Below, one piece after another: positions 8,524 through 35,039 of a stretch of 64,000 nt of DNA; positions within the stretch are counted from its first letter, which is position 1, and each line of letters starts with the position of its first letter. The notes beneath the pieces were generated by a model. The model was given only the letters and a program-made list of their open reading frames with translations, did no database searches and had not been told where the DNA came from. The stretch is from Rhodamnia argentea (taxonomy: Eukaryota > Streptophyta > Magnoliopsida > Myrtales > Myrtaceae), in the NCBI RefSeq assembly GCF_020921035.1, contig NC_063157.1:23143015-23207014 (forward strand), written 5' to 3'. The position numbers were made by a program, and so were the translations under genes.

Positions 8524-9258
8524 TGCAAAAACCAATTAGGCAGTCTTCACCAGGTACAAATGTATCACGCTGTTAAAAAGATGAAACCCATAAGACATCA
8601 TCTCCCTACTAAAGTGTATCGGTGTCGAGAGCTAAACAAAACTTTCACGCAGTTTTCTTCGTATTGGGTTTACAATAGGATTGCTATGCCTAGCATAAGT
8701 GTAATACTCGAGAAAAAGGGGCAGCTGAGAGGAGAACTTCTTTCTCCCTCACTCTCTTTTAACATGATTTCCTCACCATACATACTGAACATTGAAGTCA
8801 TACTCCTGTGCAAATAGATAAAAGGAAGAACCGATGCTCTGGGAGATCATACTGTACTGTTGGACATCTTTGACAGCCAGAACTTCCCTCAACTATCATA
8901 CAATGTGACAAAGCCTCTCTCTCAGAATTCATAGTTCTGATCAGGTGCAACCAGTAAAATCCAGATGACATTGTATAGGATCACATTTCCCAATATTATG
9001 GTGGAAAACACAACACTGCTGCCTACTTTCTTAGCCACATGTTAGCTCTAAAAGATCTCCGAAAAGCTACACATACAAGCAAGGTAAAATACTTTTAAGA
9101 AAAACAAAAACAAGGGCAAATTGCAATAAACTTCTAAATACAAGGCAGTACAATAGAAGGTGAGATTACTGACCCTAAGTGCAGGTCTCAGCACAAGTTG
9201 CCTCTGTCAATTTCAAGAAGACAACCACTTTAGCAGCCATTTTAGAGATTCCGTCAAT
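8524..9258. other. Spacer between SMG8 and the unidentified gene
   Basis: Probable SMG8 3' UTR next to 9258, then promoter DNA of the downstream minus-strand candidate. A plus-strand open frame at 8560-8817 has no recognisable domain and is not called. Confidence 0.4.
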
Positions 9259-12200
9259 TCAATCTAGTGCAGAATCCCCTTCGTTAGGGCTGCCTTCCTT
9301 GGACACAATCAGCAAAGTTGTGGATTCTTTTATCCAGGCAGTTTTCTCAGGTTGATGTTCGAAAGGCCTAAGAGGATGCAACTGGTCCTCAAGTTGTATG
9401 CCATAGATAAAAGGAAGCCTAAGCACGAGAAAGCTCTCTGGTGGTAAAATCACTCGACATCCAAGGTTGAATTTCAATTTCTGTTCACAGTCGGGAATGG
9501 ATAAAGGAAGACAAGATGCCTGAAAAGTGCAGGGAATTTTCGTATTAATCTTGCTTATGCTACTTGTACATGTGAAGATTATAAAAGATGATGCAGGTAC
9601 CTAACGGCAACAACCCCCAAAAAGCAAGGCATACCTCAAATTGTATGACCGGATCAATGGCTAATATTACTGGAAAAGGCGGAGTGACCTAGAAGAAAGT
9701 CCACATGTTAGTCTACACAGAGTCAGGGGTCAAAGCCCAATAATGTTGAACAAGCAGAGATGCCCCTGAAGTTTTCAGTTCTGTCATCAGAAACGCGGAA
9801 TAACAAATGGTGTTTTCAGTTCTCTGTCACGAAAAATGCGGAAAACTTATCGATGTCTCCAGAAAAGATGCATTGTAAAAAACTTCTCACTATTTCTTAC
9901 ATTCGTACTTCAATCTTGAATTTACTGTGTTCACAAATAGCTTTTTGCAACAAGGAAATTCGCCAGCTCCAAAGAAATCAAACTGAATGCCTAAAATTCA
10001 TGAGAATGAGCTGCAACGTAGATTTTCAGCTAACTAGATAAATCAGGTTATATAAGTAGAAGAGTGAAAGGTAGATACCAGAAAAATCCTCTGGAGCTGC
10101 GATACAGTGCTAGCAAATTGCACATTTGATGTATCCTTCTTCTTCAAGAACTTGCAGTGTGGACAGTTCATGTATATAGGTAATTTCCGATTCAACAGAG
10201 AGGATGCACAACCACCATTATCAAGGCTGATGGAGTGAAGACGTTCTTCCAAGTCTTCCACAAACTCAGGAGCTCTTGACAACCTGCTTGTTGTCTGATA
10301 ATGTTCTTTTCTTTTACCAGGTAAGTGTGTTGACTGATTATGCACTAAATTACCATTGGCCGGGGTCTCTTTTGATTTGTTCATATTTCTCACCTTCTTT
10401 CTGGTGGACGCAATCCCATCTGAACCCAATTGAACTTTATTATTACCACCATTCTCATCCAATTGACTAGAATCAGAAGTCACATCCAACAGAGGAAAGT
10501 CAGAATCATTTGGTGGCGAATACAATGACCCAAGTTCATCAAGACACTTTCGATTCAGCAGAAAACGATGGCCACGCGGACACTCATACTCAAACCCAAA
10601 ATAAGATGAAACATTCTTCAAGGATGTTCTTGATGAGACCTTTTCATCAGCACTCATGTTTACGGGTATAATATTGCTACCTATCTGTACAAAAGGGTTA
10701 CCCGCATGAAATTTACTAGAAGCAATCCTATTTGAATCGATTTGATCAGAAATACCCCGAAACCTGTTTGATGCATTATGGTCAACATTTGTGTGTATCT
10801 GTTCTGGAGCACTTTCTACTGGATTGGTTTCCTTAATCACCTTTTCTGTAACTAAAGGAGGCTGTTTCCTCTGCCGGAGAGGAGGAAAAGCCGAATCAGC
10901 AGCTGCAGTTCCAGCAACTACCTCAGAAAAAGGTCTTTTGATCATAAAATTGGGAAAACCTCTCCCAAAACTAATTGTTTTGCTGTCAGAAAAGATAGCA
11001 TCAGTCTTCTCTGAATTGTCATTGCCATGCTGCACATGTCCCGGATATGATTTCATATTAACGTTCCTCTTCATGTCTGTGGATGTATTAGAATCAGATA
11101 CCACGTCTGTGTCTGACCTAACTGTATCATCCAGTTGAATTGTCTTTGGTGGTAAACCATAAATCTTCTTCTGTTTTTCCAGGTAAATCGTCCATTTCAG
11201 AAGATATTTTTCATTGGCATGGAAGCCACTCTGCAGTAAACCTTTGGAAGGATCATAGTACTTTGAATTCCCTAGACGTAACAAACGCCATGAGGACGCA
11301 TTAATAGGTTCTCTGTTGCTTATTTCAGGCAATTGAAGTGCAGGGAGTAGCTTTTCACAATCTGAAGAGCAGTTAACATTGTTGGCAGATTTGAAGTCAA
11401 AAGGGTCAGCTCGTAATTGCCGTGAACGGCCACAGGGACATGCATGGAGGAAAACATATCCACTTGAATGTGGCTTGGCATCTGTTGAAAGGGAATCAAC
11501 TTCCTCAATACCGTGTCTTTGATGCACACATGGTTTTCCAGTCAAACTTACAGCATCACACAGTTGCCTTCCAGATGTCCAGATTGATACGCATTCATCC
11601 TTTAACATCTTCAAAAAATGTTGCACTGCAGGTCCTTTTACCATTGAGCGAAAAGCATGCAAAGCCCTTGCCAAATGAGTTTCATGCTGAGAAGTTGAAT
11701 AACAAGCAGGCAAGTCCTTCAAATAGATCTCCCTAGCAGATGGAAGGGCTTTTTGGCACCATGAAGTTGAAAACTTCATGTTGAGTCCTTTTCCTCTCTC
11801 CAACCAAGATACTGCAACATCTACAGGCTCCGCACCTTTCAATGCGATGCCTTCAACCTGAGGGGAATTGATATTTCGCTGCCTAGGCTTTCTCTTGGAA
11901 ACTTCGATTTCATCTATACATCCACGTTTTCCCGTAAGGACCCCATGAAGGACAATCTCACTGGAAGAAAGCCAGGATTCCAGACTTGGAAGTTCAGGAG
12001 CTGTAACTGCTTTGCCAGATGCCGCTGAAGCAGCTGCGGCAGCTGCAGCAACAGCAACCATGCCAACACCAGCAGCTGAGCCACCATTGGTGTTCGCCAC
12101 CCCTCTACCCCTCAAGACATCAGAATGCCGATGGATGAATTCCTTTATGGATATTACATCCTCCTTGTTGTTACTCTGACTGTGGCTTTCAAGCAAGAGA

Positions 12201-14648
12201 GAATCTGAAGTTGCTTTTCCATTCAAAACATCTTCCACAAGGCCCGTTGCAAATTCAAGAGATTCGCCTCTCTGATTTGTTGATCTATCAAGCAGAACAA
12301 CAGCCCTTGAAGCATCAAGCAGAAATAATGGTGCAGAACTTGAGGCACCCCCTCTTGACCCAGCATGACCAGTTTCAGATCCCGAGAGCGTTCGACATTT
12401 CTTAATGAGAAAGCGAATCTGCGCTTCGAGAGATGACTGTAGCCTCTTCTTGAAACCACCTTCAGACTTACTAATAGGGCGTGCTAGCACAACTACAGAA
12501 CCAGGAGCTTTTGTAGGCAAGGCTGATGATCTAGAGGAACTGCTTAAATTAGCACTGGCATTAACTGAGGAGGTTTCTGCAGCCTCCTCCACATGCGAGC
12601 TTGCATGTGCCACCTCCAAGTAATCATCAACAAAGACGAAGAGTATGACAGGAGTACACTGCCCGGGAAACAAAGATGTGGATGAACCTAAACCGGACAT
12701 AAGTGATATAGCAGATGCATTACGATTCATATTACGACTTCTACCTGGGGAAACGTTGTGAATAGAGGCTGATGACACGGTATGTCGTAAAGATGAGGAA
12801 GATTGAGGTCTGGATGGCAGCATTGGCATAGTTTTGGACCTCACAAATGGGGCTAAAGCCTGCTTAGCTGCTTGAAGTATACGAAAACTTTTCAAAGTTT
12901 GGGTATCAAGATGTGATCCTTCTTGAAGATGTACGATTAGATGGCAAACCTACATTATGTGGTGTCATTTGTCATATTCAAGAGAGGTGCGAGTGAAATT
13001 CAAAGATAACAGATCTTGCATGAATAAAAATCGATCGGCAAATGGCAGAAAACGGTATCAAGTGCCAGCTTCAGTATCTCAAATTAGAGTACCTCGTTTG
13101 TCAAGTTAATCAAACCATGGTCTACAAGGAAATGCAAACTGGAGTATCAAATCATGGTTAAGCTTGAATTTTAGCCCCAACATTATTTCTCAGGAATTTG
13201 AGAACACATCAACAAGATGTGACATAAAGATCCAGAAACAATTCAAAGATGCTCGTTGAGAAAGAATGCTCACATGTATACTGACTTGCAACATGTTAAC
13301 AAATGCTAGACTTGTTTGCCAATGTTTAAATTCTGCTTTCAATATTTATGGCATGAATTTGCATCAAAATGATTCTGAATTACTTAATTCCCAAAAATTT
13401 ATCTCAGAAACTAGTCAGCTTTCTATAATTCAATGCAATAATTTCACTTTTGCTTTCTCTGCTACTTGTAAACAAATTGCACAAACACAGGCTATGAATT
13501 CTACCTCTCATTCTAAACTATTTAAAAAGGAAATATATCACGCCATTCAAATGATTCCAAACATATTCTTGCACGATAAAATAACCAGAAGATCAGTTTT
13601 ATTTCGTCCTAGGAAATGGTTTTAGGAGAAGACAATTCTTCAAACACATTATGGACACAAAACACCGCCCTTCTCTCAAAGAGAGGCAGTACCATGTCTC
13701 CGAGCAAATGCTTTAAGGAGGTTTCTACAGGGAGGCCCAGCGTCAGCGAATCTACTTTAACTGTTCAACTTTTAAATGCATTTATGATTCACCGTCCTAC
13801 CAACATGCAGTAATGCTAGCGAGTGACCAACAAGTGCCGATAGTGGCAATCCATATTCATCATAATCGCCGTGATTTGATGAATTTCCCGTTTTCACAAG
13901 ACGTTGCCCAGACTCAACAGAAGGAACACAAGGATCCTTAAATTGCAATTTCGCGGGCAAGCACACTGAAGCAACATTAGGCATATGAAATCACAGCACT
14001 CAAGACTCAACTGAATCACTTAAATCTAGTACCAGTAAGAAGGTCGCATCGATAATTTTTAGACACTAAGTTTGCCATTTCAACTAGCTTCTAGTTCTAC
14101 TCCTTTTTCAGGCGAAAATTTGAGCTCTAGAAAACTCCCACCGACTCGTGAACTGAAAAACTCAACGAAGGCAAATCCATACTGAAATCGAAGCAGAACA
14201 AACTCACAGAGAACATGAAAAGCAATCCCTGAAGGTCCCCGAACTCGCGCTCCTCCACGAATGAATCGAACCCCGACGCGGCCTCGGAGGGCGGGTGAGC
14301 CGCCGGGCAGCTCGTCGAGCAGAACTGCAAGTAGAGGACGCCTCTCTCCTCGTCGTAGTAATAGCTGACCCTCCTGCACCTGAACCATTCCTTCGCTTCG
14401 TCGCCGTCGAGGCGGAGCACCTGGTCGACACCGCCCGAGCCGAAGGCGTTGAGATCGAGGACCTTGTTAAGGAGTTGCGCCGAGAAGTCGGCGCTCCGAG
14501 CGATGAAACCGACCACCACGATGCCCCGAGAAGGAGCGGGCGAGGAGGGCGGAGGAGGATCCGAGGGGGGAGGCGGAGCGGGGGCCGGAGGCGGAGCGAG
14601 AGGGGGGCGGGTCAGGACCCGCACGGGAGGCGCGTGGCGCGTGGTCAT
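9259..14648 (-). CDS. SMG8: Nonsense-mediated mRNA decay factor SMG8
   Basis: Four exons: 14208-14648 (147 codons), 10079-12949 (957 codons), 9635-9688 (18 codons), 9259-9519 (87 codons with stop). Every junction is phase 0 with GT-AG ends, giving 1208 aa, the usual length of plant SMG8. In other eukaryotes SMG8 with SMG9 binds and restrains the SMG1 kinase that phosphorylates UPF1 during mRNA surveillance. Landmarks: Pro-rich N-terminus then SRGIVVVGFIARSADFSAQL (start of the GTPase-like domain), LQGLLFMFS joined to VCHLIVHLQEGSHLDTQTLK at intron 1, a conserved ILFVFVDDY block, Ala-rich run near the middle, CxxG-type Cys/His motifs (VHQRHG, HACPCGRSRQL, YECPRGHRFL, YMNCPHC) in the second half, and a C-terminal VQLEDQLHPLRPFEHQPEKT-like module ending near 9259. 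The start ATG at 14648 sits close to site II promoter motifs. Its first exon was duplicated downstream (see 17438-17531). Confidence 0.93.
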
Positions 14649-14754
14649 CGGAGGTAGCTAGCGTCCAGAGCCGAGAACGTCATCGGACTAGGGGAAGAAG
14701 AGGAGCGAGCGACGACTACGACGACTGTCCATGGCAGTCTTCACTTCGAGTTCT

Positions 14755-14810
14755 TTGGGCCTGAATTCATTTATCGGCCCACAAAGATTATTTTGGGCCC
14801 ACAAAGCGAT
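14755..14810 (-). promoter_or_regulatory. Site II (TGGGCC/GGCCCA) cluster in the SMG8 promoter
   Basis: Three TGGGCC/GGCCCA motifs within about 50 bp ('tttgggcctg', 'tcggcccaca', 'tttgggcccaca'), 110-160 bp upstream of the SMG8 start. Site II elements are TCP-bound and typical of housekeeping and growth genes. The duplicated block carries a related cluster near 17929-17960. Confidence 0.55.
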
Positions 14811-15587
14811 TAGCCCTTGAGCCCTCGTTGGCAATATTGTTATCAAAATAATTAGTCAACTGAAATTATTTTCATTATCGATAATAACACAATATTAAAA
14901 ATTTTCGTACAATAATAAAAATATTTTTTTATTTATTCATTTATTTAAATTACACAGAGGATCAATTTTTAGGGAAAATAATTTTTAAACAATTTATTTT
15001 CACAAATAAAATGGAACCTAAAATGAAATTTGAATAGAATTAACCAAATCGATGGATCAACAAAAATGGACATATCTTTTTTATACATAATCTCGACTTT
15101 ACTCGGAAAAAATTTGTCAACACTCCTCTAATTTTTTCTGATTTTTTCTTTGGACGTGTCAATTAAACGAGCCAACAACGATTATAATCACATAGAAGTC
15201 AACAAAAGAGCACTCTACCTTCGCATCGTAGAACAATCGTTCCGAAATAGTTAAGCTCCAAAACAAGAACCTAGCATCGTCCTCTATCAAAGTTCGATTC
15301 TAGGTTTTTCAATTTTTGGAACCAAAATCGAGAAGCCATTAGTCATTTATCATGATAATATAGACTAAATGCCAATATATCAAGAAAGCCGGTATTGGTA
15401 GTATTGCGCAACTGCGTCCTTACATGTCCTGTGTACACAAAAGCAAGATTGAGCAGCAATTTTCTATCTCCCGAAAAGTGGACAAACACACGAGAAAATT
15501 CATCTGAAGCTTCTAAATCCTGCAATCCCCCACCGAGATTTTTAACCCGAAAAACCCAAGCGCCGGATCAAGGGAGCCCTGGCCGCT

Positions 15588-15960
15588 TCTGAACTTGGTC
15601 ACCGCCTTCCAGCCCTCCACCAGGGCCTACCTGCGGAGCCCGTCTGGGAGCACGAGCCGGATGGCAGTCTGGATCTCCCGGGAGGTGATGGTCGGCTTCT
15701 TGTTGTCGCGCGCAAGCCGCGACGGCTCCTGGGCCGGCCTCTCGAAGATGTCATTGATGAAGCTGTCCATGATGGCCATGGCCTTGCTCGAGATGCGCAT
15801 GCCCGGAAGCACCTGCTTCAGCACCTTGAAGATGTAGATCTTGTACGTCTCGACGCTCCTCTTCCCCCGCTTCTTCCTCTTGTCGCCGGTCCCCCTCCTT
15901 GGGGAGCTTCTTCTCGGGCCTCTTGTTCTCCACCTGCTTCTTCTCTCGCTTTGGCGCCAT
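15588..15960 (-). pseudogene. Histone H2B pseudogene
   Basis: The ATG (MAPKREKK) aligns with the intact H2B at 18746-19174. The Lys/Pro-rich tail has lost about 19 residues. One extra C in the run near 15893-15897 shifts the frame after KKLPKEG; the shifted frame then holds the histone fold ([37 protein letters not shown]) with several changed residues that H2B almost never varies (for example VLPGMRIS for VHPDVGIS, and RPAQEPS for KLAQESS). The C-terminal helix is replaced by an out-of-frame end after [10 protein letters not shown]. Host gene copy that lost function after the local duplication. Confidence 0.9.
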
Positions 15961-15975
15961 TGGAGACTCGAGTTG

Positions 15976-16430
15976 ATGCGGATGTCATTAGTAATACGTT
16001 TCTGGATCGATTGGATCAACACAAATCTAATTAGAAGGCGAAACGGTACTGCAGCTAGAACCAGCGGATCGGGTCGACGACGTCGGATTGAGTTCAAATT
16101 CGGTAGGCTGAAGCGAAACGGCGTCCTGATCAATACTCACGGCCTTTGGCCGTGACTAACGATGAATTTTGGCCGTTCGAGAATGTCTAGATGGGTTTTC
16201 CTATTTTTTTTAGTATTTTTCAGGCTTAATTTTATTTCAGTGGCACTTTTGTAATTTTCCCTTTTTTGATATTTTGATTCCTAATTGGACTAGGGTTAGG
16301 ATAACACCCTATAAAAGGTGTTTATCACGTTTTTTGAAGCACATCATCAATAATATTCATAGAATTTCGAGATTTTTCTCCTTTAGCAAGGATTTTCTTG
16401 CGTTATTCGCCGAATTCTGCGTCACGAGTG
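15976..16430 (+). mobile_element. LTR-like insertion in duplication unit 1 (fossil)
   Basis: About 455 bp present here but absent from the matching place in unit 2, between the H2B start and its promoter. It holds a TATA box (TATAAAAGG near 16311) followed by 'atcatcaataatattcatag' and a TTTCTCC-rich stretch, the layout of the promoter and R/U5 part of a plant LTR, probably Copia-type. I could not fix end repeats or a target duplication. It separates the H2B relic from its own promoter. Remnant only. Confidence 0.45.
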
Positions 16431-16525
16431 GCCCGCGCTTGCGGCGAGAGATAGATGCAAAGCACGAATTCTGCGTGTGTGCGTGAGAGAGAGAGAGGAA
16501 ACGATGGGGCCGAGAGGAGAAGCGA

Positions 16526-16548
16526 CGGAGGATTGCTGCCGTGGACGA
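16526..16548 (-). promoter_or_regulatory. Decayed histone promoter element (copy in unit 1)
   Basis: The segment 'ggattgctgccgtgg' aligns with the intact 'ggatcgctgacgtgg' at 19334-19348. Both the octamer and the hexamer are altered (TGACGT has become TGCCGT), and an insertion now separates it from the H2B relic. Confidence 0.6.
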
Positions 16549-17040
16549 GCGGATATTGCTTGTGGCGGGTAACGTTAGTCACACGCAAGCGATATTACGC
16601 TAGCACCTCGGCTCTTTCCAAAAAGACTAAAGGAGAACCAAATACATCGCATAAAATCCAGCAAGCATCATGCCCCCAAGCTCAAGCATCTCTAACGGCA
16701 ATCTACATTGTTTCTTGCAAACTACGGACCAAGGATAAACAGTCTCACTTCGAGTGATAATCCCACAAGCAGAATCTGCTAACTCCATATCAATTCCGTC
16801 CTTGTCGAAGAATGAACGTCAATCACTGTGTATCTAATGATCCTGTGCATGTATAAACTGTGTGTTCGCATCGGTTCTGACCATTCTTTCACCAATGGAA
16901 AATGTTCGAATGTGAACAGACGTCTCCGCTGCACGTCTACACCAGCCAAACTTCATATTCTAATAATGAAGAAACCGCTAAAGTTATAACACCCAAAAAC
17001 AAAGAGCCTTTGTTCTAGAAAACTATCTAACTAGCTAAGT

Positions 17041-17425
17041 ACGTAAATTAAACAGCCACAGACTTGTCCTTATCTCTGTCCCTGTCTCCAACAAACGTGT
17101 GATTCACCGATTCAAAAACCAGATTTTTCAAAGCCAAGATGGGGAGAGAATGCCTTTCATAAGCAATAGTAACATCTAATCGCATGATGTTGGGCGCAAC
17201 TTTCTGCCGAACTGTGAGTCATAATGAGTTCATCGAGACAGATTGGTAAGGCAGAGTGGCCGACGAACAAAGCAACATGGCCCATGAGCTTGTCCTTCCT
17301 CGAGAAGGTGATCCCGCGATTGCACTGCCATTAGGCATCCCTGCTGTCCTCCTCGTGCGTCCTCAGATCAGAAGGCACCGAGAACTGCTTCCAATCGCAC
17401 CTATTGCACACATACATCGGACCAC
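17041..17425 (-). pseudogene. STOP1-like zinc-finger pseudogene, 3' part
   Basis: Matches the 3' end of the intact STOP1-like gene at 21128-21480, including the stop region ('ttaaacagccac') and the codons of zinc fingers 3 and 4 read on the minus strand ('catggcccatgagcttgtcc', 'cttcctcgagaagg', 'cgtcctcagatc'). The match ends at about 17425 inside finger 3, where an SMG8 exon-1 copy starts. The homologous 3' flank continues left to about 16640. Small indels and substitutions break the frame. No 5' part exists in unit 1. Confidence 0.88.
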
Positions 17426-17437
17426 CACGATGCTCCA

Positions 17438-17531
17438 AGGAGCAGGCAAGGAGGGACGGCATAGGTGTAGGATGAGGATCCCAACAGGGAGGCGTAGCGA
17501 GAGTGGAGCAGGTCATGGGAGGTGCGTGGTC
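17438..17531 (-). pseudogene. SMG8 exon-1 relic at the duplication junction
   Basis: Aligns with 14532-14646: 'ggagcaggcaaggaggg' against 'ggagcgggcgaggaggg', 'gggaggcgtagcgagag' against 'ggaggcggagcgagag', then 'gcgtggtcat', which is the complement of the SMG8 start codon. It is the start of SMG8 copied downstream and directly fused to the STOP1-like 3' relic. A hAT element was inserted at the start codon. Confidence 0.85.
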
Positions 17532-17539
17532 ATTTGGAG

Positions 17540-17810
17540 TAGACATGGCCAAATGGAACCGGGGGCCCGTTGAGCGGGCCCACGGTTCCGACCCGGAATC
17601 GGAACTGTCCCTTAAGGGCCGGTTCCGGTTTCTAAATTGTCAGAACCATCCCGGAACCGCCGGTCCGGGGCCAATTCCGACCCTGTTTAAAAAAAAGAAA
17701 GGGGGGGGGGAGAGGAGGCCCGAGGGGAAAGAACCATTGGGTCCGGGAACAAGCGGTTCCACCTTTTCTAGAAACCAAAACCGGCGGTTCGAACGAACCA
17801 GCCACGTCTA
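17540..17810. mobile_element. Non-autonomous hAT element (MITE), 271 bp
   Basis: Terminal inverted repeats TAGACATGGCC (left) and GCCACGTCTA (right, inverse TAGACGTGGC). Exact 8-bp target duplication ATTTGGAG at 17532-17539 and 17811-17818. The inside is rich in GGTTCCGG/CCGGAACC words and codes for nothing. 8-bp duplications with short TIRs are diagnostic of the hAT superfamily. It lies in the SMG8 exon-1 relic, so it arrived after the tandem duplication. Confidence 0.9.
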
Positions 17811-18745
17811 ATTTGGAGATAGCTAGTGTCGAGAGCCGAGAACCTCACCGGACTCGGAGAAGAAGAGGAGCGAGCTACGACTACGACTCCGACTCTCAAA
17901 GGTGGTCTGCATTTCGAGTTCTTTGGGCTTGAATTTGTTTATCGGCCTTGGGCCCACAAATCGCTTAGCCCTTGATCTCCATCGTCGGTTAGATTCCCTT
18001 TTCAAGATAAAAGAAGATTTCCGCTCCGATTGCTTAACGTTAAAAATATATATATTTTTTAAAATAATCACTCATAGCATTTAAAATAATTAATCAAAGA
18101 AAAAAATTATTTTCATGAATAATGAAAAAAAATATTCATTCATTCATTTGTCTGAGCAATGCAAACAATTACTTTCTGAAAAAAAATTCCAAATTATTTA
18201 TTTTTTCACAATTTGGATGGAATACACCACATCAATCAACAAAAATGGACAATTTTCAATTCCCGCACAAATTTTCTGATTTTTAGACATGTCAATAATA
18301 CGAGCCAACAGCGATTGTAATCACTTAGCAATGAAAAAAGAGAGTGATCTACCATCACAAGTCTTGCCATGTTTCGAAAGAAATTAAGTTCCAAATCAAG
18401 AACCCAGAATCGAATCATCCCCTATCAAAATTGATACCCTACTCTTGAATTTTCATTTAACATAAATCGAGAAGCCATCAGTCATTTGTCATAATAATTT
18501 AGAGAGTTTGCTAATATATCAAGAAAGCCACAGTAGATTCTGGTACATCACAGCTGCGTCCTAACATGTCAGGTTCTACCTTCTGCGCAAGCAAAAGATC
18601 AAGCAGCACTTTTCATCTCCCAAAACATTACAAAACACAAATTCCACTGGAGCTTCTCGAATTTTGCAATCCCCCACCGAGTTTTTTTTACAAGGAAAAA
18701 AAAGCCAAAGGCCGCACCAAAAATGGCCCAGATCGAGAGAGATCC

Positions 18746-19174
18746 CTAGGCGCTGGTGAACTTGGTCACCGCCTTGGTCCCTTCCGACACGGCGTGCTTG
18801 GCGAGCTCGCCGGGGAGCACCAGCCGGACGGCCGTCTGGATTTCCCGGGAGGTGATGGTGGGCTTCTTGTTGTAGCGCGCGAGCCGCGACGACTCCTGGG
18901 CCAGCTTCTCGAAGATGTCGTTGATGAAGCTGTTCATGATGCCCATGGCCTTGCTCGAGATGCCGACGTCTGGGTGGACCTGCTTCAGCACCTTGAAGAT
19001 GTAGATCTTGTACGTCTCGACGCTTCTCTTCGCCCGCTTCTTCCTCTTGTCGACAGCCCCCTCCTTGGGGAGCTTCTTCTCGGCCCTCGGCTTCTTCTCC
19101 GCCGGCGCCTTCTCGGCCTTCTTGTCCTCCGCCGGCTTCTTCTCGGCCGGCTTCTTCTCTCCCTTCGGCGCCAT
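18746..19174 (-). CDS. H2B: Histone H2B
   Basis: Intronless, 142 aa, starting [19 protein letters not shown]. The Lys/Ala/Pro-rich N-terminal tail spans about residues 1-48; the histone fold follows ([59 protein letters not shown]), ending [11 protein letters not shown]. All core residues expected of plant H2B are present, including the C-terminal Lys of the AVTKFTS motif that is monoubiquitinated in plants. It packs DNA as an H2A-H2B dimer in the nucleosome. The promoter carries a replication-type histone element (19331-19348). The decayed copy at 15588-15960 arose from the local tandem duplication. Confidence 0.97.
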
Positions 19175-19280
19175 TAGAGACTCGAGCCACGCGCTTGTGG
19201 TGAGATACAGATGCAGAGCGCGAATTTTGTGAGTGGGAGAGAAGGAGAGGAAGCGGTGGGATTGACAGGCGAAGCGACAA

Positions 19281-19290
19281 CGTATTTATG
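19281..19290 (-). promoter_or_regulatory. TATA-like box of H2B
   Basis: On the minus strand 'cataaatacg', about 107 bp upstream of the H2B start codon and about 45 bp downstream of the histone type I element. Position and order fit a core promoter. Confidence 0.55.
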
Positions 19291-19330
19291 GAGGGAGAGG
19301 CGTGACATGTGATTGGTTCTTTGGGCGAGA

Positions 19331-19348
19331 CGCGGATCGCTGACGTGG
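19331..19348 (-). promoter_or_regulatory. Plant histone type I promoter element (hexamer + octamer)
   Basis: The minus strand reads CCACGTCAGCGATCCGCG, an exact fit to the plant histone type I consensus CCACGTCANCGATCCGCG, which joins the ACGTCA hexamer and the reverse octamer GATCCGCG. It directs S-phase, meristem-specific expression of plant core histone genes. It lies about 157 bp upstream of the H2B ATG. A CCAAT box ('gattggt' on plus) is nearby at about 19312. Confidence 0.9.
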
Positions 19349-19399
19349 ACAAGCGGTTCTTACTTGTGGCGGGCTTATTCGAAATCGGCGTGTTAGAGA

Positions 19400-20740
19400 G
19401 GAGGGAGTTCGAGGTTTGCGAAAACCATGGTCATCATCGCAGCAGTTTCGGTCAATCTTTTAAAAATTATCAAAAGTTGTGTATAATTCTAATTATCGAG
19501 AGTCTCAAATATTTCGCATTAAATAAAGAACGAAAAATTGGGATGGCAATCAGAACAAGTTTTAATTTCCAATGTGATATTCATGTGCATTATCATCTTA
19601 CATTCATAACCTGGCTTTTTAAATAACGAATTGCATGTTTTTTCTCAACACCAATTTTTCGATATATTTCTTGCTAAAACTATAGCCTCGGATATATTAC
19701 AACCTGTTCTTTCCTCTGTCCTCCCTCTCTATCTATCCAAAGGATGAAAGGGCAGGGGGAAACTCTTGCTCCTCATCCTACAACCCTACTCTTGCTAATG
19801 CTAGTGTTACTAGGTTGAATTATTCGAGAATCTCCAAATCCATACTTTCACGCTCATGTCATGTCATGTCGTGGTACTATTGAAGACAAATGTTCCCCTC
19901 CCGATATACGTAGGAGGACCTTTTGTAATAGATTCTCCCCCCTGAAGTTGGAGTATCGAGATCTTTTCCTCACCTCGTCCTACTATCCTGCATTTAGTAC
20001 TTAGTTATCGCTCGCTGTTTACCCGAAAAAGGTGGTCCATAAGCTTTTTACTTCCTTTTTCTACCTGCATTTTACAGTGAAGCTGATCCCTTCATGGCTC
20101 TCTTTCTCTCCACTAGCCCTTCCATTTCTTCGTTCCGAACCATTAGTTGAATTCTTCATTCTTTTTATTTATTTTTCATCTTTTAATTCATTCAATTCAC
20201 AGGCGTTCAACTCGTAAAGGCAAAGAAAAAGGGATCCGTCTTGCTAGCATTATGTAACACTTTGGCAGTGCTCTCGAATCGAAACCAAAATAATGAATCA
20301 TAGCACATGGAGCCATCTCCTTATTGAAAACAGAATACTATTCCGCTAATTCGACTCTGCTCATTTCTTTTAAGAGGCGAACAACAAATAAGTGCGTTAC
20401 ATATGCACGTGAAAGAAAAAGGGATCGAAATAACTCTATTAACGAAAGACGGAATGCATGCATATTCTCATTATCTGGAGAAAATAATCGCTTGGTTATT
20501 AGAGTAGTGAGAAAATAATCGCTTGGTGAACACTCCGTAACATTCTCAAGAGATGTTTGAGACTAGAAACTTGTTAGGATGGGCAACACTATCATACACA
20601 CAAAATTATTTTATTTTCGAGATATCGAACATTTAACTGACTGTAGAACGAATTGAGAAGAAAGTTGAAATTCAAATGTGGTAGGTATGAAGTTTGTGGC
20701 TCTTCCCAAAGGAAACTGAAGTGAAGGGGGTCCGTATTAT
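19400..20740. other. Block unique to unit 2; 19.7-20.5 kb resembles organellar DNA
   Basis: No gene. This 1.3 kb between H2B and the STOP1-like gene has no match in unit 1. The part at about 19690-20480 has a base texture unlike its AT-rich neighbours and like plant mitochondrial spacer DNA ('ctagtgttactaggttgaat', 'gaaaaagggatccgtcttgc'). It may be a nuclear insertion of mitochondrial DNA; this is a texture judgement, not an alignment. Confidence 0.35.
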
Positions 20741-21127
20741 TACAGAAGATCCAACAAGTATCATGCCCTCAAGCATCTAGCAGCAATCTTACGTTGTTTC
20801 TTGCAATCTACAGAGAAAGCATAACGGTCGATCATACATGACACCAACGGTCCCATTTCTAGAGATGATCCAAAAACAGCAGAAACCGCAAACTCCAAAC
20901 GAATTCTATCATCGCAGAAGAGTCGGATGATCCTGTGCATGTATGAACCGTTTGTCGTGTCGGTTCTGATCCTTTTTTTGCCGACGGAGAATGTTCGGGT
21001 GGTCAAGGTCGGGCGTCTCCGCTGCATGACTACACCAGCCAAACCTCATCTCCTGATAATCAAGAAACCAGCAAAGTTATAGAGCGTAGAAATAACTAGA
21101 CTTCGTTCGAGCAAACTATCTAGCTAG

Positions 21128-22435
21128 TTAAGTTTCATAATTTAAACAGCCACATATCCAAGGAAAAAGACCAGATTTTTCAATGCCAAGATGAGGAAAA
21201 AATTGCCTATCATAAGCAGCAATACCATCTAATTGCATGATGTTGGGTGCAACTATCTGCTGAGCTCTGAGTCCTGGTGGGTTCATCAAGTCGAGCGATA
21301 AGGCAGGCGAGTGGCCGACGAACAAAGCGACATGGCCCATGAGCTTGTCCTTCCTCGAGAAGGTGGTCCCGCAGTTGCACTGCCACTTGACGTCCCCGCA
21401 GTGCTTCTCGTGCGTCCTCAGATCGGACAGCACCGAGAACTGCTTCCGGTTGCACCTCTTGCACACATACAACTTGGGGCAGTGGCTCCTCTTGTAGTGG
21501 TTCTTGACACAGATCATGGACTTCAGAGGCTGGAACCTGGGGTGCTTCCGGTTCCACCGGCAGCCCTCTTGTGGGCAGGAGTACTTCTTCGGCCTTAATC
21601 CCATCAAACACTCTTGATCACCGTTCGGTTTGTCGCGGTTGCTATCAGTATTCTTGGCGGGGTTGCATAGAGCGGCGCTGGTTTTGTACTCGTCCCCGTG
21701 AGCCCTCATGTGCATTCGCAGGTTCGCGTCCCGCTTGAACCCTTTCCCGCAGATTTGGCAATAGTGCGTGTACTTCGCCAACAAATCATCGGCGTTCAGT
21801 TCGACGACATCATAACTAGCGCCACTCAACGCATGTTCGGCTTGTGGTATCTCCTTCTTCTGGCGACCCGCTTGAGGCAATTCTCTCATTCCTTGATCCG
21901 ACCCGCTATTTTTCGCAATACTTGCCGACGGTTTGCTTTCATTATTACCGTTGTAATCGACAAAGCTGCTTGCGCTATACCAGTCAAGAGAGCTAGGCTC
22001 ATGAACAAGAGGCTGGTTGCTGTTATTGTTATCGTTATCGTTATCGGTATCAGTATTAGTACCTGAAGGCATAGCGGGACCGAGAAGTGTCATCTGTTGG
22101 CAAGAGAACATCATAGATGTTGCGGTCCCTATGATTTCTTGGATCAAGCTTCCGATGCCAGCTAAGGCCAGGGACGTTGACTCGGGCCGGCCTCGACCGG
22201 AGGAACCTTGTCCTTGAGACCAGGTGACCAGCGATTGGACTTGACGAACCTTGTCCTCGAGAAGAGAGAGACTATGAAGCAGAGAGCTCGAGTGGGCTTC
22301 CAACGCGGAAGCCAGCGGCAGCACTCCTTCCGAAACGGGTGCAAGAACACGGCGGTCTTGATCATACCCGCCTCGAATCATCTGCATCCCCTGCGAAACG
22401 CTCGCGAGATTACGAGAAGTCGGATCGAGAATCAT
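21128..22435 (-). CDS. STOP1-like: STOP1/STOP2-like C2H2 zinc-finger transcription factor
   Basis: Intronless, 435 aa. Relatives (SENSITIVE TO PROTON RHIZOTOXICITY 1/2) switch on acid- and aluminium-tolerance genes in root nuclei. Fingers: ZF1 at about 225-246 ([21 protein letters not shown]); ZF2 at about 285-320 (CPQEGCRW ... [13 protein letters not shown]); ZF3 at 323-346 ([20 protein letters not shown]); ZF4 at 351-375 ([20 protein letters not shown]). This long-spaced ZF2 and split ZF4 are typical of the STOP1 family. The N-terminal half holds a leucine-rich helix ([19 protein letters not shown]), a [13 protein letters not shown] acidic repeat at 126-140, and little else. The C-terminus ends [12 protein letters not shown]. 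The ATG at 22435 matches the family start (MILD). The 3' half is also present as a decayed copy at 17041-17425. Confidence 0.93.
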
Positions 22436-22610
22436 GGTCTTCTCTCTCGCTTCTTCTCTTCGACCACGGGGAATTACGTGTCCAACTTTGCTAATTCAGG
22501 CGGCGGATCCGGCTTCTTCTCAGGAAGGGTCTTGGGTGTAATAACAGGTGTTTCATATAAGCACGTACAAACAAGCGGGCGATGGCTAGGTTTTTTCTGA
22601 GACGTGAGAG

Positions 22611-22614
<4 letters not shown>

Positions 22615-22652
<38 letters not shown>
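22615..22652. repeat. (GA)19 microsatellite
   Basis: Uninterrupted GA run about 180 bp upstream of the STOP1-like start, so likely in its promoter or 5' UTR; such GAGA tracts can bind BPC factors. Confidence 0.95.
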
Positions 22653-22656
<4 letters not shown>

Positions 22657-25488
22657 TTCGAGTCAACGTTTGAGATTGGGGTTCATCCCCACTTAAGACC
22701 TCCCTCAAGCACTACCAATCTCAGTCCCAGTTGGGATGGGGACGATGACTCCTTCCAAAAATAAGATGATGGAGCTCGAGATGAAGTTGGTGGATTAATA
22801 TTAAAGAACGAACCAAACCCCAGTGGCGTCCCTGCGCTGGCTCTTAATAATAATCTGAAACTTACAACTCGGGCATTAGATTTCTTCAAAATCTCACTCT
22901 ATCTCTCCATGAGGAAAGTGAAGAGAGGGCGTCATTTTCAGCCGTCAATCTCTGCGCATGAGTTGAAAAATTCACACGAGACGACTCTTTTCAAATGAAA
23001 GGAAATCCCATCAACCATGCCTTTTCGTGTCAAATTCATCGTTTACCATGCCTCCATTTCGTGTCAAATTCATCATTTACCACGTCTCCATTTCTTTAAA
23101 GTCGTATAACATCTAAAAAAGCGTCAAAAGTGTCATAAACTTATTGCATTGATTTTAATTCAGTACTAAATCTTTTAAGTAGGTTTAAGACTTTTTTTTT
23201 TTACACTTTTACCCTACAACATCTAATCCGCTCCGTCATCTCTTACCATTTTTCTTGTGGCTCGGCTCCTCATTTGCTGATTGCGAAATAGGAATCTTTC
23301 TGGCAGACGGTGGAACTTCGTTGATCACAGGCGCAAATGCCAGAAATCCGTATTGTAGAATGCTACCAACACAGTCTCATCCACATTTCGTATCACTTGT
23401 CTCAAAATGCCACTCGGCCATCACAACTGCAAAAAATAGTACCCCCAAAAAAAAAAATTAGGGGCGCTGGGAGACAGAAGGTAGGCAGAGCTTTTTTCTT
23501 GTCATTAAGCCTGAAAGTTACATAATGCAACTCCTCCATCGGAGAATACACATTAAGAAGCTGATCGAGGACGAATCTATATTTCCTAATTACGTTCCCA
23601 TGTTGGGGAAGTTGGTAATGTATTCGAGCACTAGTCATTCGTATATAGGCTCGCCAAGAGAACTGGCTATGACTTCCCCAGTTAGCTCCTGAGCATGGAC
23701 AGTGTTCTGTATCTAGGGTTTCGACCTCGCCGAGAGAACTAGTTATCACTGGTCCAGTTAGCTTCTGATCATGGACACAGGCCGATAGAATTCATCTCTA
23801 GTCGTGAGATGAGAGGAAAGACATGGAGATTTGAGGCACAAGAAAGGTGCTGTGGACCCCCCCTTCCTCTCCTGTCTCCCCAATAGTAAACCATTTCATC
23901 TAGACTATTTAACTTGTCAATAGCTAAATATTTAGAACTTGAACACTAATCGAGATCATCCTCCCATTGGTTGCGGGTGCATGCACTTAAAACTCACAAG
24001 GGCTTTAAGTGTCAGAAGCTAGAATTGCATCCAAACTCGGGTTTCACATGAATTGTTTGATTTTATGACGGAGAGAGTGCATCTCATGCCGAAATGCAGG
24101 TATCGAGCAAACCAAGAACTAGCTAGATGATTCAAACAGCACAACGAACCAGGCAAGAGCAAAGTAGAACTTCTAAGAGAATCATCTGAAAAGGCAAATT
24201 CTTAATGCCAAAAGTCAAGACCAGTTATTGCTAAAAATTGCATTTCTGAGATAGTTTATTTCCCACAGCACCAGGCATCCAGACAAATTCTTTACGAATA
24301 GACAGTGTGTAATCATTTGGCTATAAAAAGGAAGAAGAAAATCGTAAACATCCCATTTCCTAGTACAGATGTACCATATTCCCCGCGAAACTTGACAAAT
24401 AGATGCTAGAAACCGAGACTTACCTGTCAAGCGAGTCAATCTCCAATTCTTAATTCATATTTCCTTATCTAGTTGATCTCTGCTAGCTTTCAGGCGATTC
24501 AGCCCCAGGCAAAATGCCAGAGACCCTCAGAAAATTGAAATTTTCTCGATCAAACATGAGAGGCTTGGAATAAATCTACCCCAACTTCATCCATGAAGGA
24601 AGATGCAGATATTCCCGTGTCAACAGTACTAAGAAGTCACCCTACATGAATTTAGGTACAAATTTCACTGACTCTCAAAATCACTGAAGTTTTCCCTTAA
24701 TGTCCAAAACATATACAATTCAACTGAGTTCCACGACTAAATTCCCAGCTCTCAGAAAATATATTGACCATCAAGAATCCGGCAAAAAAGAAGTGTCCAA
24801 CATAGTTGATGACACCAGGTACTAGACACAACTAGAGATGCACCGAAGGAGTTTATCCCCTCGTTAAACCAGCTCCAATGAGAAACCTTCCCAATGAAGA
24901 CGTGGTAAATGTGTGTCATAAACAAACAAGCCCCGAGATTGTGGGCCCCATAACTCTTGTTGATGAAAAACACTTATGTGAGTTAAGTCTATGGTAGAAC
25001 ATTGCGCCAAAGTCGTCAGATCAAGGGAAACCCATGTAAAACCTACTCTTCCCCATATGAATTGCATCTAATGTACCCAAGTCATACAATCTCTAACATG
25101 CAAATGAAATGAAGGTGGACATGATTTCAGCAAAATAAAATAGGGAATGTTCTGCAATTTTTTGTGAGATCTATTATGCAACTAGCGCATTTGTGAGTTG
25201 AATGTGACAACAGAATTGTGAGACCAGTTAAAACACAAAATCAGTATTAAGTATTCATCTTGATATCCACCAGTCATTTCCCAATTACACCGGCCAAGAA
25301 AAGCAAGTGCTGTTCCAAAGTGGCCAGTACAAACATTGGATCACTGACACCACAATAAACAAAGTTTCACAATAGATTCTCCAAAGAGGAGAATTGCTGA
25401 CAAGACAAGTTTCATAACATCCTAACACTTACTAAAGCAACCCTAATATACTGTGATATTGTTTCAAAGCACTAGCGAAACAGCATGT
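22653..25488. other. Intergenic; no gene recognised
   Basis: AT-rich DNA. Upstream of the STOP1-like gene there is a short direct repeat around 23020-23090 ('cgtgtcaaattcatc' twice). 23651-23778 is a 76-bp tandem duplication. The part next to 25488 is likely CKS1 3' UTR. No coding block was convincing. Confidence 0.35.
23651..23780. repeat. Diverged tandem duplication, period 76 bp
   Basis: 'tcgccaagagaactggctat' at 23651 is repeated as 'tcgccgagagaactagttat' at 23727, and each copy goes on with 'ccagttagct(c/t)ctga(g/t)catggac'. About 85% identical by eye over the compared part. Confidence 0.8.
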
Positions 25489-30060: not shown

Positions 30061-30518
30061 CATGACCTTTTCAGAAGTGAATTACATAAGGAAATCTAAT
30101 GGATTACTAAGCGTGGTGCTTAATATGGACTCTCCTAGCCCTACCAACCGCAGCTTGGTATTCAATTTAACATGCAATTAGAGCTGTCACTTATCGGTTG
30201 GGGTAATTCTAGGGATAATAGGACTTGATTACACTAAATTTATTTTAACGTCCATTCGATTTTCTCTTTATTTTAAAATGTTTTTCAAGTAGTCTTTATC
30301 AATTTTATCCTAAGCCACTATCATGTGATTGTGATCGTGTGGATGCGCAAACAAGATTGCAACACTCAATTAACAAAGCAGTAAATAGATTGGGGTAAAT
30401 TTAAAGAAGCTGGATGAACTAAGAAAAACACATGCAAAGCATCATCACTATCCATCACCACGAGGTTTCTGCAAACTATGATTAAGGAAAAATATGCAGA
30501 CGGAATTCATGAATTTTA

Positions 30519-31497
30519 GGGAAAAATCCAAAAAAGGGCCTGAAGTTTTCATAATTTCTCAAATAAGGGTCCAAAGTGAACATTATTTCAAAAAAGGGCC
30601 CGAAGTGACATGCTACGTTTCAATTGAGGGCCCGAAGTGGTTATTATATTTCAAAAAAGGGTCCGGCTCGAAGGGCGTTTTCGTCATTTCACATTTTAAT
30701 TTTTTTTAAATTTTTTTCTTTTTCCTAATTTATAATAATAAAAAAATAATTTAAAAAAAAAGGTTTTGCACCGGCGGGAGGGCTGCCCTTCTCGCCTGTG
30801 GTCGCCGATCCACCGTCGGTGGGGGGTCGGCGGACGCGACGAAGGCCGACGGGGTCGCCGGCGACCCCGCCGGTCGGAGGCGAGGGCCTCTGGCCCTCTC
30901 CCGGATCTGGGCGAGGCCGGCGGTCCCCGCTCGGATCGGGGGCCGCCGGCCATCGCCCCGTCGCCGGTGGGGGGTTGCCTGGTCAAGGCGGCCCCGGCCC
31001 GGCCCCGAGCGATGGCCGGCGACCCCCGATCCGAGTGGGATCCGCCGGCTTCGCCCAGATCCGAGAGAGGGCCCGACCCTCTCCCCGTATTGGCCCTCGC
31101 CTGCGGTCGGCCGGGTCGCCGACCCATGCCGAGGCGCCGACGACCCCGTCAGACTGTGCCACCTCCCGCCTACCGCCCTCCGGCGGTGGGGCGGTGGCCA
31201 TAGGTGGGAGGGCAACCCCTCCCGCCCGTGAACGTTCACTTCCCTTTTTTTTTTTTTAGGAAAGAGACTACAAAAACTATAATAAAAAATTAAATAAGTA
31301 AAAAAACTAAAATGCCCTTAACTCAGGCCTTTTTTTGAGAATTTATAGTCATTTCGAGCCCTTATTTGAAACGGTATTCACTTGGGGCCCTTATTTGAGA
31401 AAACATGAGGACTTCGGGCCCTTTTTTGAAACAGTGTTCATTGGGGCCCTTATTTGAGAAAATATGAAGACTTCAGGCCCTTTTTTGGATTTTTCCC
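30519..31497. mobile_element. Mutator-like (MULE) non-autonomous foldback element, 979 bp
   Basis: Exact 9-bp target duplication TGAATTTTA at 30510-30518 and 31498-31506. The ends are inverted repeats beginning GGGAAAAATCCAAAAAAGGG on the left and ending with its complement on the right; the inverted match goes on for about 190 bp with repeated 'gggcccgaag' / 'cttcgggccc' words. The inner part (30760-31240) is GC-rich and itself partly palindromic, so it is open in several frames on both strands without coding a recognisable protein. 9-bp duplications and long TIRs are typical of Mutator-like elements. Confidence 0.88.
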
Positions 31498-31506
31498 TGA
31501 ATTTTA

Positions 31507-32752
31507 TGCATGCATTAAGGACTAACTAATATGCAATATTTTCTGAATTTTTTGGTATTTTCCTCGTTTAATCAACATGCGTAATTTAAGAAGATGCACG
31601 GATGACTAGTTTAGCCGCGCTAATGAAAATGCTAAGTGACATGAACGAGATGACTATATGACATGCATAATGAGTTGTAAGTTACATGTTATGAAATTAA
31701 TTCAAAAAGTCTGCATGAGATGTCAATGAAATTTAATCCTAAACGACAAGTAACACCCTAAAAGTCATGCAATATGAGTTTACGAGAATTAATTCTCCTA
31801 ATTAATACATTCTCTATGAGAATCCCTAAGTAGATTATTCGTTCTTTTTCTTTGTTTATTAACAAAAGGACACATTGAACCTAAAAGTCTATATGAAGAT
31901 GCTCTAATTCCTAAGTGCAAGATGACACACTCTTGATTTTAAGATAATGTGTGCATACAATCCTAAATTAATTAGCATGCATGAACGACATCGTGAACTA
32001 ATTCTATATTAAAAACTTCATGAAGCGATTTCTTTTCAAGAAAACATCAAATTTAAAGTTAGGACTCTACGTGTGACCCAATGAACTAGCCAATAAATGA
32101 TTATATGACTAATGACTGCATAATGCAATACTATCTATATACAACGTGCGTAATGCATGCAATGCAACTAATAGCTAAATTTATATATGATTTCCTAAAT
32201 GATGTATAATATGCACTCTGGTAAATATTCAGGACATAATTAAACAACCTACGATTCTACTACAAAATAACATGCATTTAAAACTATATTCTGAAGAAAA
32301 AAACTACAAATGTAAAACTAGACAAATTAACCTCGACTTACCTTAAGCGGAAGGCAGCCGCGGATGTTGGATGTCTCTCAGTGGGATCAAAAAGCCGCCA
32401 TTAAGCCATGCTCTTCCTTTACGTAGTTGTTTTTTTACTCAAGGACACCAAGACTGTCCACCACCGATTGGGCCTTTTTCTTGAAGCTCCACGGAATTTG
32501 ACTTTGCGAATGCGCTTAATAAAGTCTCGCGGCTTGTGACTAATCAACCAAAGAATCCGAATGTCTGACCAAGCAAAAGGACAGAATCCATTGGTTGAGT
32601 CCGTCCCGCTCAGGTGGCGCATTGCTAATCTTGAATTGGACGCCGCGCCAAGGATCGCCAAGGGCGTTGAGGCGAAAGAGCCGGGGACAAGGACTCCGGT
32701 GTCGCTCGGTGGAGATCACACAGAGCAGAGGACGCGAGATGGAGCCGAAGAC
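31507..32752. other. AT-rich intergenic DNA; right end holds a possible host ORF
   Basis: 31507-32340 shows many 'atgca' words and no gene. 32419-32750 has higher GC and open frames on both strands; it borders the solo LTR and may have belonged to the host sequence interrupted by it. Confidence 0.3.
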
Positions 32753-34328: not shown

Positions 34329-34645
34329 TGAGAGTGAAGTGGGACCTCTATATAAGGAGAGAAATGTAAGGACCTTATTTGATAAGAAAGTTCATGAGAT
34401 AATGCCAAATCTTTCCGCTTGTCAAACATGAAATCCTCCAATAATCCACCATGGGCACGATCAGATTTTGGTGTCATCCAGAACAGACATATCTTCATGG
34501 CCTTATCTTGAAGATGGGAATTACGAAGTCCTCAGAGTGATAGTGATAACGGCCTTCTTTTCATCCTCTCTCTCTCTTTTCTTTAAATTTTACTGTGCAT
34601 TGTTGCATTTGCTCCTATCAAAGTATATGCTTTCTTATTTCGAAA

Positions 34646-35001
34646 AATGACATAAATGGTCCCTGAATTTTGATCCAATGTGCAATGTGATCCTTTTTAA
34701 TTTGACCGATATGGTCCCTTAACTTTAGCTTAACGTGCAACATAATCTCTTTCAATTTGTTCAATGTAATTCCCAAACTTTTGGAACATGTTCAACTTAA
34801 TCCTTGAACTATAAGAAAATGTTCAAAGTTGCCCCTAAACTTGAATTAATGAAAAGACTAAGTTTAACATCTTCCTATAATTCAAAGACTAATTTGAACA
34901 TTTTTCAAAATTTTGGGGACCATATTGGTTGAATTAAAAGTTCATGAACCAAATTGCATATTGGATCAAAGTTTAGGGACCATTTGTGTGATTATCCCTT
35001 C
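34646..35001. repeat. Foldback MITE family 2, copy 1
   Basis: About 355 bp. Left end 'aaatggtccctgaattttga', right end 'agtttagggaccatttgtgt' are inverted. The inside repeats 'ggtccc', 'caatgtgcaa' and 'aacatgttcaa' words in both senses. The same element is at 61717-62092 and, enlarged, at 39810-40405. Non-coding. Confidence 0.7.
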
Positions 35002-35039
35002 TTATTTCTTTATCCCATCCACTCACTTGGTTTTTCCTT

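What the first reader, a model, noticed from the sequence alone, without database searches (positions are those of the whole stretch)
14532..22435. Tandem duplication of an SMG8 exon 1 - H2B - STOP1-like block with a chimeric junction
Two units keep the same order and orientation. At about 17425-17438 the 3' part of a STOP1-like gene runs straight into a copy of SMG8 exon 1. This is the joint predicted by one tandem duplication with breakpoints inside the STOP1-like zinc fingers and inside SMG8 exon 1. SMG8 and one H2B/STOP1-like pair stay whole; the other partners became relics.
Basis: partly seen in the sequence, partly recalled or inferred. Interest (0 to 1): 0.75.

Follow-up and report, generated by a model that had tools for sequence, protein, structure and literature searches.

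The report
Old tandem duplication fusing two genes
In a myrtle-family plant, a stretch of DNA running from inside one gene, across a histone gene, to inside another gene was copied in tandem long ago; the fused and spare copies then decayed, so it is a clear but ordinary genomic fossil.

Summary
Two collinear, same-orientation units lie side by side: unit A about 14512-17420 and unit B about 17421-21472 (not to 22435; the rest of the STOP-like gene is single copy). Six collinear matches score 678-42.5 bits; the best of the shuffles scored 31.1. The joint at 17417-17421 runs from zinc finger 3 of a STOP2-like gene into codon ~46 of an SMG8 exon 1 copy. One tandem duplication with breakpoints inside SMG8 and the STOP2-like gene explains it. 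SMG8, one H2B and one STOP2-like gene stay whole; the SMG8 stub, the other H2B and the STOP2 stub are relics. Coding relics differ from the whole copies about half as much as flanks do (K 0.162 vs 0.349), as expected if only the relics drifted. Protein matches place the window in Myrtaceae, nearest Psidium for SMG8. Age is roughly 15-35 My, younger than the family's genome duplication. The fusion was probably out of frame from birth. A 271-bp insert with an 8-bp target-site duplication later hit the SMG8 stub. Locus tags suggest SMG8, H2B and STOP2 are old neighbours in several eudicots. Real, well explained, modest interest.

The parts
9262..14648 (-). SMG8 gene, intact; coding matches to the Psidium guajava protein at 14648-14205, 12949-10073, 9721-9635 (weak, 66%) and 9483-9262
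   Evidence: tblastn of P0121; PF10220 E=4.6e-51 for exon 2; best protein match of exon 2 Psidium guajava 94%
14512..17420 (+). Unit A of the tandem duplication: 5' part of SMG8 exon 1, SMG8 5' flank, H2B relic, 3' stub of STOP2-like gene
   Evidence: collinear BLAST segments with unit B
14649..14845 (-). SMG8 5' flank, unit A copy (used by the intact SMG8); slow divergence suggests promoter/5' UTR constraint
   Evidence: K 0.198 (0.132-0.284) against 0.354 in the two pooled 3' flanks
15590..15962 (-). H2B-a pseudogene: shortened and frameshifted N-terminal tail, internal stop near the C-terminus
   Evidence: codon alignment to H2B-b and core alignment; PF00125 E=2e-17 on the open part
15973..16433 (.). 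461 bp present only in unit A, between H2B-a and its 5' flank; insertion of unknown class
   Evidence: gap in collinearity; no clear terminal repeats seen
17152..17418 (-). STOP2-like 3' stub: zinc finger 3 onward, with stops and frameshifts; last cysteine of finger 3 lost
   Evidence: tblastn of Syzygium P0001 at 17417-17235 and 17233-17153; translation
17417..17421 (.). Duplication joint: STOP2-like zinc finger 3 runs into SMG8 exon 1 (codon ~46); no homology found at the breakpoints, perhaps 3 bp of microhomology (by eye)
   Evidence: alignment ends 17416 = 21471 and 17420 = 14511; breakpoint comparison
17421..21472 (+). Unit B of the tandem duplication: SMG8 exon 1 stub, its 5' flank, whole H2B, 3' part of whole STOP2-like gene
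17421..17533 (-). SMG8 exon 1 5' stub, 113 bp left against 137 bp in the whole gene; dead: old start codon followed by a stop after 6 codons
   Evidence: translation MTTHLP*; lengths; K 0.376 to the intact copy
17540..17810 (.). 271-bp MITE-like insert flanked by 8-bp direct repeat ATTTGGAG (17532-17539 and 17811-17818), ends TAGACATGGC / GCCACGTCTA; unit A has a single diverged copy of the target site
18749..19174 (-). H2B-b, intact 142-aa histone H2B (stop codon at 18746-18748)
   Evidence: PF00125 E=1.2e-22; PDB chain 9k3z_D, Histone H2B.1, E=1.5e-70; Eucalyptus grandis H2B 94%
19374..20697 (.). 1324 bp present only in unit B, between H2B-b and the STOP2-like gene (insertion in B or loss in A)
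   Evidence: gap in collinearity
21128..22435 (-). STOP2-like zinc-finger gene, intact 435 aa, with a C-terminal extension relative to Syzygium/Corymbia
   Evidence: PF23115, PF23118; 76% to Syzygium oleosum and Corymbia proteins; alignment

Best explanation
A single tandem duplication in the lineage of a myrtle-family plant copied the segment from codon ~46 of SMG8 exon 1, across an H2B gene, to zinc finger 3 of a STOP2-like gene (all on the minus strand). By construction the outer copies of SMG8 and STOP2 stayed complete. The inner copies were cut and joined as SMG8 promoter and N-terminus -> STOP2 3' part, probably by end joining or template switching without homology. The fusion was most likely out of frame from birth. 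The stubs and one of the two H2B copies then decayed without selection, while SMG8, H2B-b and the STOP2-like gene were kept. Later a 271-bp MITE-like element split the SMG8 stub from its promoter copy. Shown: collinearity, joint, relic state, insert. Inferred: number of events, frame at birth, age, joining mechanism.
For: Six collinear segments above the shuffle maximum. The joint lies where both partial genes end. K between copies is 0.349 (0.304-0.402) in the pooled H2B and STOP 3' flanks but 0.162 (0.129-0.205) in the pooled coding parts; ratio 0.46 (0.35-0.60) (a first run that kept a poorly aligned H2B tail gave 0.49). This is what results if only the relic lineage changed freely in coding parts. 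Differences are spread fairly evenly over codon positions 1/2/3: 11/14/17 of 101 for the H2B core and 21/20/17 of 105 for STOP. Phase: 17421 = 14512 is the second base of an SMG8 codon and 17416 = 21471 is the second base of a STOP codon, five bases apart, so the two frames do not meet. No similarity beyond chance between the breakpoint neighbourhoods (best E 3.3).
Against: A larger duplication followed by an internal deletion leaves the same structure. About 4 bases at the joint cannot be assigned to either side, so the frame at birth is not certain. No DNA of a relative was available. The SMG8 coding stub has K 0.376 (0.243-0.566), not half of the flanks; I read that as weak constraint on its proline-rich N-terminus, which was not tested.
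Confidence: 0.85

Rival explanations
1. Two steps: a larger tandem duplication with all of SMG8, H2B and STOP2, then one deletion from inside the first STOP2 to inside the second SMG8.
For: Gives the same final map; nothing in the window excludes it.
Against: Needs two events; the window self-comparison at E 1e-5 shows no duplicated sequence just outside the units, although the deletion could have removed it.
Confidence: 0.1
2. Whole-genome-duplication remnant brought together by rearrangement.
For: Myrtaceae had a whole-genome duplication (passages of PMC8051600, PMC10022486 and PMC11165866).
Against: Paralog peaks reported there are Ks about 0.9-1.3; flank K here is 0.349. Head-to-tail adjacency needs no rearrangement if it was tandem.
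Confidence: 0.01
3. Assembly artefact (false tandem copy).
For: No reads could be inspected.
Against: Copies are about 70% identical in flanks and about 85% in coding parts, with different insertions and a target-site duplication; false duplications would be near identical.
Confidence: 0.01
4. The SMG8-STOP2 fusion is a working chimeric gene.
For: A 102-codon stop-to-stop frame runs through the joint (17331-17639 minus) and shows a weak, below-cut-off zinc-finger match (15.8 of 27 bits).
Against: 42 stop-to-stop frames of at least 80 codons overlap 9000-24000; the frame is not SMG8's; finger 3 has lost its last cysteine and the frame stops soon after; differences are nearly flat over codon positions.
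Confidence: 0.03

Closest known systems
Chimeric genes and truncations made by tandem duplications with breakpoints inside genes (Drosophila yakuba, PMC5460883; search listing and start of abstract only)
   Same: Tandem duplication captures part of one gene and part of another and joins promoter/5' exon of one to the 3' part of the other (partly recalled)
   Different: Here in a plant, old, probably out of frame and decayed, with no sign in the sequence of a retained product
Tandem gene duplicates with pseudogenised copies in plant genomes (recalled)
   Same: One copy kept, the other decays at near-neutral rate
   Different: Spans three genes; only the middle gene (H2B) was duplicated whole
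hAT-type MITEs (recalled)
   Same: 8-bp target-site duplication, short non-coding element, short terminal inverted repeats (TAGACRTGGC)
   Different: No family match was searched; terminal repeat only about 10 bp
Arabidopsis HTB2 (AT5G22880) and STOP2 (AT5G22890), consecutive locus numbers
   Same: H2B beside STOP2, as in the window (identities from passages of PMC7410336 and PMC7539395)
   Different: SMG8 neighbourhood and duplication state were not checked there

Membership tests
Tandem segmental duplication with chimeric joint | Two adjacent collinear copies in direct orientation | tested here: met
Tandem segmental duplication with chimeric joint | Joint connects a fragment of one gene to a fragment of another, with intact outer copies of both | tested here: met
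Tandem segmental duplication with chimeric joint | Pre-duplication state in a relative | not testable with these tools
Functional chimeric gene | Frame kept across the joint and domain residues kept | tested here: not met
   not SMG8's frame, finger cysteine lost, early stop
STOP2-like C2H2 zinc-finger protein | PF23115 and PF23118 above cut-off | tested here: met
   78.7 and 61.8 bits, cut-off 27
SMG8 (Smg8_Smg9) | PF10220 above cut-off | tested here: met
   174.6 bits for exon 2, cut-off 22.5; exon 1 alone 15.8, below cut-off
Histone H2B | Histone fold and H2B sequence | tested here: met
   PF00125 80.9 bits, cut-off 26.4; PDB matches named H2B
hAT MITE (insert 17540-17810) | 8-bp target-site duplication, terminal inverted repeats, empty site | tested here: met
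   TSD ATTTGGAG exact; terminal repeat 9 of 10 by eye; single diverged target site in unit A
hAT MITE (insert 17540-17810) | Similarity to a known hAT family | not tested

The most novel reading that the evidence does not exclude
SMG8, H2B and STOP2 form an ancient eudicot gene neighbourhood kept together by shared regulation. The duplication in this plant is a natural experiment on it: regions where the copies differ at about half the neutral rate (H2B and STOP2 coding parts and the SMG8 5' flank) mark what is under constraint, and the SMG8 stub's promoter copy could still make a non-coding RNA across the STOP2 stub.
Probability: 0.08. Interest if true: 0.45.

Novelty: new member of a known kind. 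Interest (0 to 1): 0.2.

Why it matters
It is a clean, datable case of how one tandem duplication cuts two genes, fuses them, and leaves predictable survivors and relics. The half-rate divergence of the coding relics is a neat internal check, and the apparent long-lived linkage of SMG8, H2B and STOP2 is a lead that comparative genomics can test cheaply. It does not change any view of mechanism.

Tried and rejected
Working fusion gene: rejected on frame, lost zinc ligand and nearly flat codon-position differences. Homology-driven unequal crossing over at the breakpoints: no similarity between the two breakpoint neighbourhoods, best E 3.3. Whole-genome duplication: K too low. Assembly artefact: copies too diverged. 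Class of the 461-bp unit A insert: no clear ends found. A first codon count for H2B (16/20/21 of 122) placed the broken N-terminal tail badly; it was replaced by the core alone. A shared extra codon in both STOP copies, which I first took as a shared derived mark, was dropped because the alignment puts the two extra codons at different places. Only the loss of the DRG-stop ending, absent from both copies but present in the three orthologs compared (of 120 listed STOP proteins 10 end in DRG), is kept, as moderate evidence that the duplication postdates the split from Syzygium and Corymbia. Papers: searches (term sets AT5G22880+AT5G22890; SMG8+STOP1+synteny; SENSITIVE TO PROTON RHIZOTOXICITY+histone H2B+tandem duplication; STOP1-like+histone H2B+microsynteny+zinc finger) found no paper; they cover only the open-licence library.

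Full report
Observation. The window compared with itself shows collinear plus/plus matches between 14.5-17.4 kb and 17.4-21.5 kb. A more sensitive comparison gives six segments in the same order: 14511-14614 = 17420-17515, 14650-15945 = 17815-19114, 15936-15972 = 19150-19186, 16434-16526 = 19190-19278, 16530-16569 = 19334-19373 and 16610-17416 = 20698-21471. Against 200 dinucleotide shuffles of unit B, 187 of which gave any hit, the best chance score was 31.1 bits; the six scored 678 to 42.5, and all other matches 25.4 or less. Unit A is therefore about 14512-17420 and unit B about 17421-21472.

Genes. All three genes lie on the minus strand. SMG8 runs from 14648 to 9262 with coding matches along nearly the whole Psidium guajava protein; that protein is the best match of exon 2, 94%, and Pfam Smg8_Smg9 scores 174.6 bits on exon 2. 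The H2B at 18749-19174 is whole. The zinc-finger gene at 21128-22435 carries both STOP2-type Pfam domains; its best matches are Syzygium oleosum and Corymbia citriodora, both 76%, then an unnamed one at 75%. Together these place the window in Myrtaceae, nearest Psidium among the SMG8 proteins listed; the species is not known.

Joint and relics. Reading the plus strand, the STOP2 3' stub ends at 17416 (= 21471 in the whole gene) and the SMG8 stub starts at about 17420 (= 14511). The breakpoint neighbourhoods share no similarity beyond chance (best E 3.3). By eye, three bases (AAC) stand on both sides, which with two later substitutions would fit the joint; this is a guess. The SMG8 stub's old start codon is followed by a stop after six codons, the STOP stub has stops and frameshifts and has lost the last cysteine of finger 3, and H2B-a has a broken N-terminal tail and an internal stop. 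Counting codon phase across the joint (SMG8 start 14648, STOP start 22435), the two frames do not meet, so the fusion was probably dead at birth; about four bases at the joint are unassigned, so this is not certain. The 102-codon frame that crosses the joint today is not SMG8's frame and is one of 42 stop-to-stop frames of at least 80 codons overlapping 9000-24000.

Clock. Kimura distances between the copies are 0.349 (0.304-0.402) in the pooled H2B and STOP 3' flanks, but 0.154 (0.106-0.201) in the H2B core and 0.172 (0.120-0.230) in STOP coding; pooled coding 0.162, ratio 0.46 (0.35-0.60). An earlier run that kept the badly aligned H2B tail gave 0.49 (0.37-0.63). A ratio near one half is what results if the flanks drifted in both copies but the coding parts drifted only in the relic. 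The SMG8 5' flank is also slow, 0.198 (0.132-0.284), which points to promoter or 5' UTR constraint; the SMG8 coding stub is not slow, 0.376 (0.243-0.566), which I read as weak constraint on the proline-rich N-terminus. With the Myrtales rate of 1.14e-8 per site per year given in PMC8051600 (passage) the flanks give about 15 My; with a slower 5e-9 (my assumption) about 35 My. Myrtaceae whole-genome-duplication peaks reported in the passages seen are at Ks about 0.9 to 1.3, so this event is separate and younger. Published dates in this family conflict: one paper puts Rhodomyrtus-Psidium at about 24.4 My (PMC11165866, passage), another puts Rhodomyrtus-Punica, a wider split, at 14.37 My (PMC10022486, passage). 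The age is therefore loose, and the duplication may or may not be shared within Myrteae. Both STOP copies lack the DRG-stop ending seen in the three ortholog proteins compared (Syzygium, Corymbia and one unnamed), which suggests the duplication came after the split from those; this is moderate evidence only.

Later insertions. Unit B holds a 271-bp insert at 17540-17810 with an exact 8-bp direct repeat (ATTTGGAG) on both sides, ends TAGACATGGC and GCCACGTCTA, and a single diverged target site in unit A; these are the marks of a hAT-type MITE, named from recall. It starts 7 bp upstream of the SMG8 stub's old start codon (17531-17533). Unit A holds 461 bp (15973-16433) absent from unit B, next to H2B-a; unit B holds 1324 bp (19374-20697) absent from unit A.

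Old neighbours. I counted locus tags by hand from the listings. Among species with serial tags of one annotation in both the displayed STOP rows (120 of 1587) and the displayed SMG8 rows (120 of 390), 10 of 15 have a STOP tag and an SMG8 tag within 21 of each other: Theobroma, Nyssa, Canavalia, Crotalaria, Clitoria, Pterospermum, Reevesia, Diplodiscus, Ulmus and Liquidambar (tags that step by 100 counted as one per step). The other five (Craigia, Hibiscus sabdariffa, Melastoma, Escallonia, Paulownia) do not. Among species with serial tags in both the displayed STOP rows and the displayed H2B rows (120 of 7921), 7 of 10 have an H2B within 3 tags of a STOP gene (Theobroma, Reevesia, Craigia, Pterospermum, Diplodiscus, Hibiscus sabdariffa, Clitoria); Gossypium anomalum is 38 away, and Vitis rotundifolia and Ancistrocladus are not close. 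Several of the seven also have other H2B or STOP rows that are not neighbours. Six of the seven are Malvaceae (recalled), so they are not independent. Syzygium grande has an H2B row and an SMG8 row on one contig but about 1200 tags apart. In Arabidopsis, HTB2 is AT5G22880 (PMC7410336, passage) and STOP2 is AT5G22890 (PMC7539395, passage), consecutive locus numbers. Locus tags are not coordinates, and rows stand for clusters, so this is a lead and not a demonstration.

Verdict. It is a known kind of event with an unusually clear record. Interest 0.2.

Noticed in passing
window 9262-22435 and protein lists: SMG8, H2B and STOP2 appear to be neighbours in several eudicots by locus tag (10 of 15 species for STOP-SMG8; 7 of 10 for STOP-H2B, six of them Malvaceae), and Arabidopsis HTB2 and STOP2 have consecutive locus numbers.
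   Followed up: partly
21128-21206: The intact STOP2-like protein runs about 24 residues beyond the DRG ending of its Syzygium and Corymbia orthologs; the relic copy also lacks that stop.
   Followed up: partly
14649-14845 vs 17811-17990: The SMG8 5' flank diverges at about half the rate of the other flanks, hinting at a constrained promoter or 5' UTR.
   Followed up: partly
30505-31511: A region of about 1 kb matches its own reverse complement at 68%: a long inverted repeat or foldback element.
   Followed up: no
49637-49994: About three tandem copies of a unit of about 114 bp, 85-91% alike.
   Followed up: no
34636-35009 and 61711-62099: Dispersed repeat, 75% identical, also matching in inverted orientation; probably a transposable element.
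   Followed up: no
P0002 and P0050: Corymbia has two STOP2-like proteins in the list, 76% and 51% identical to the window's (tags BT93_J0525 and BT93_B1889), so the window's SMG8-linked copy belongs to the first type.
   Followed up: no
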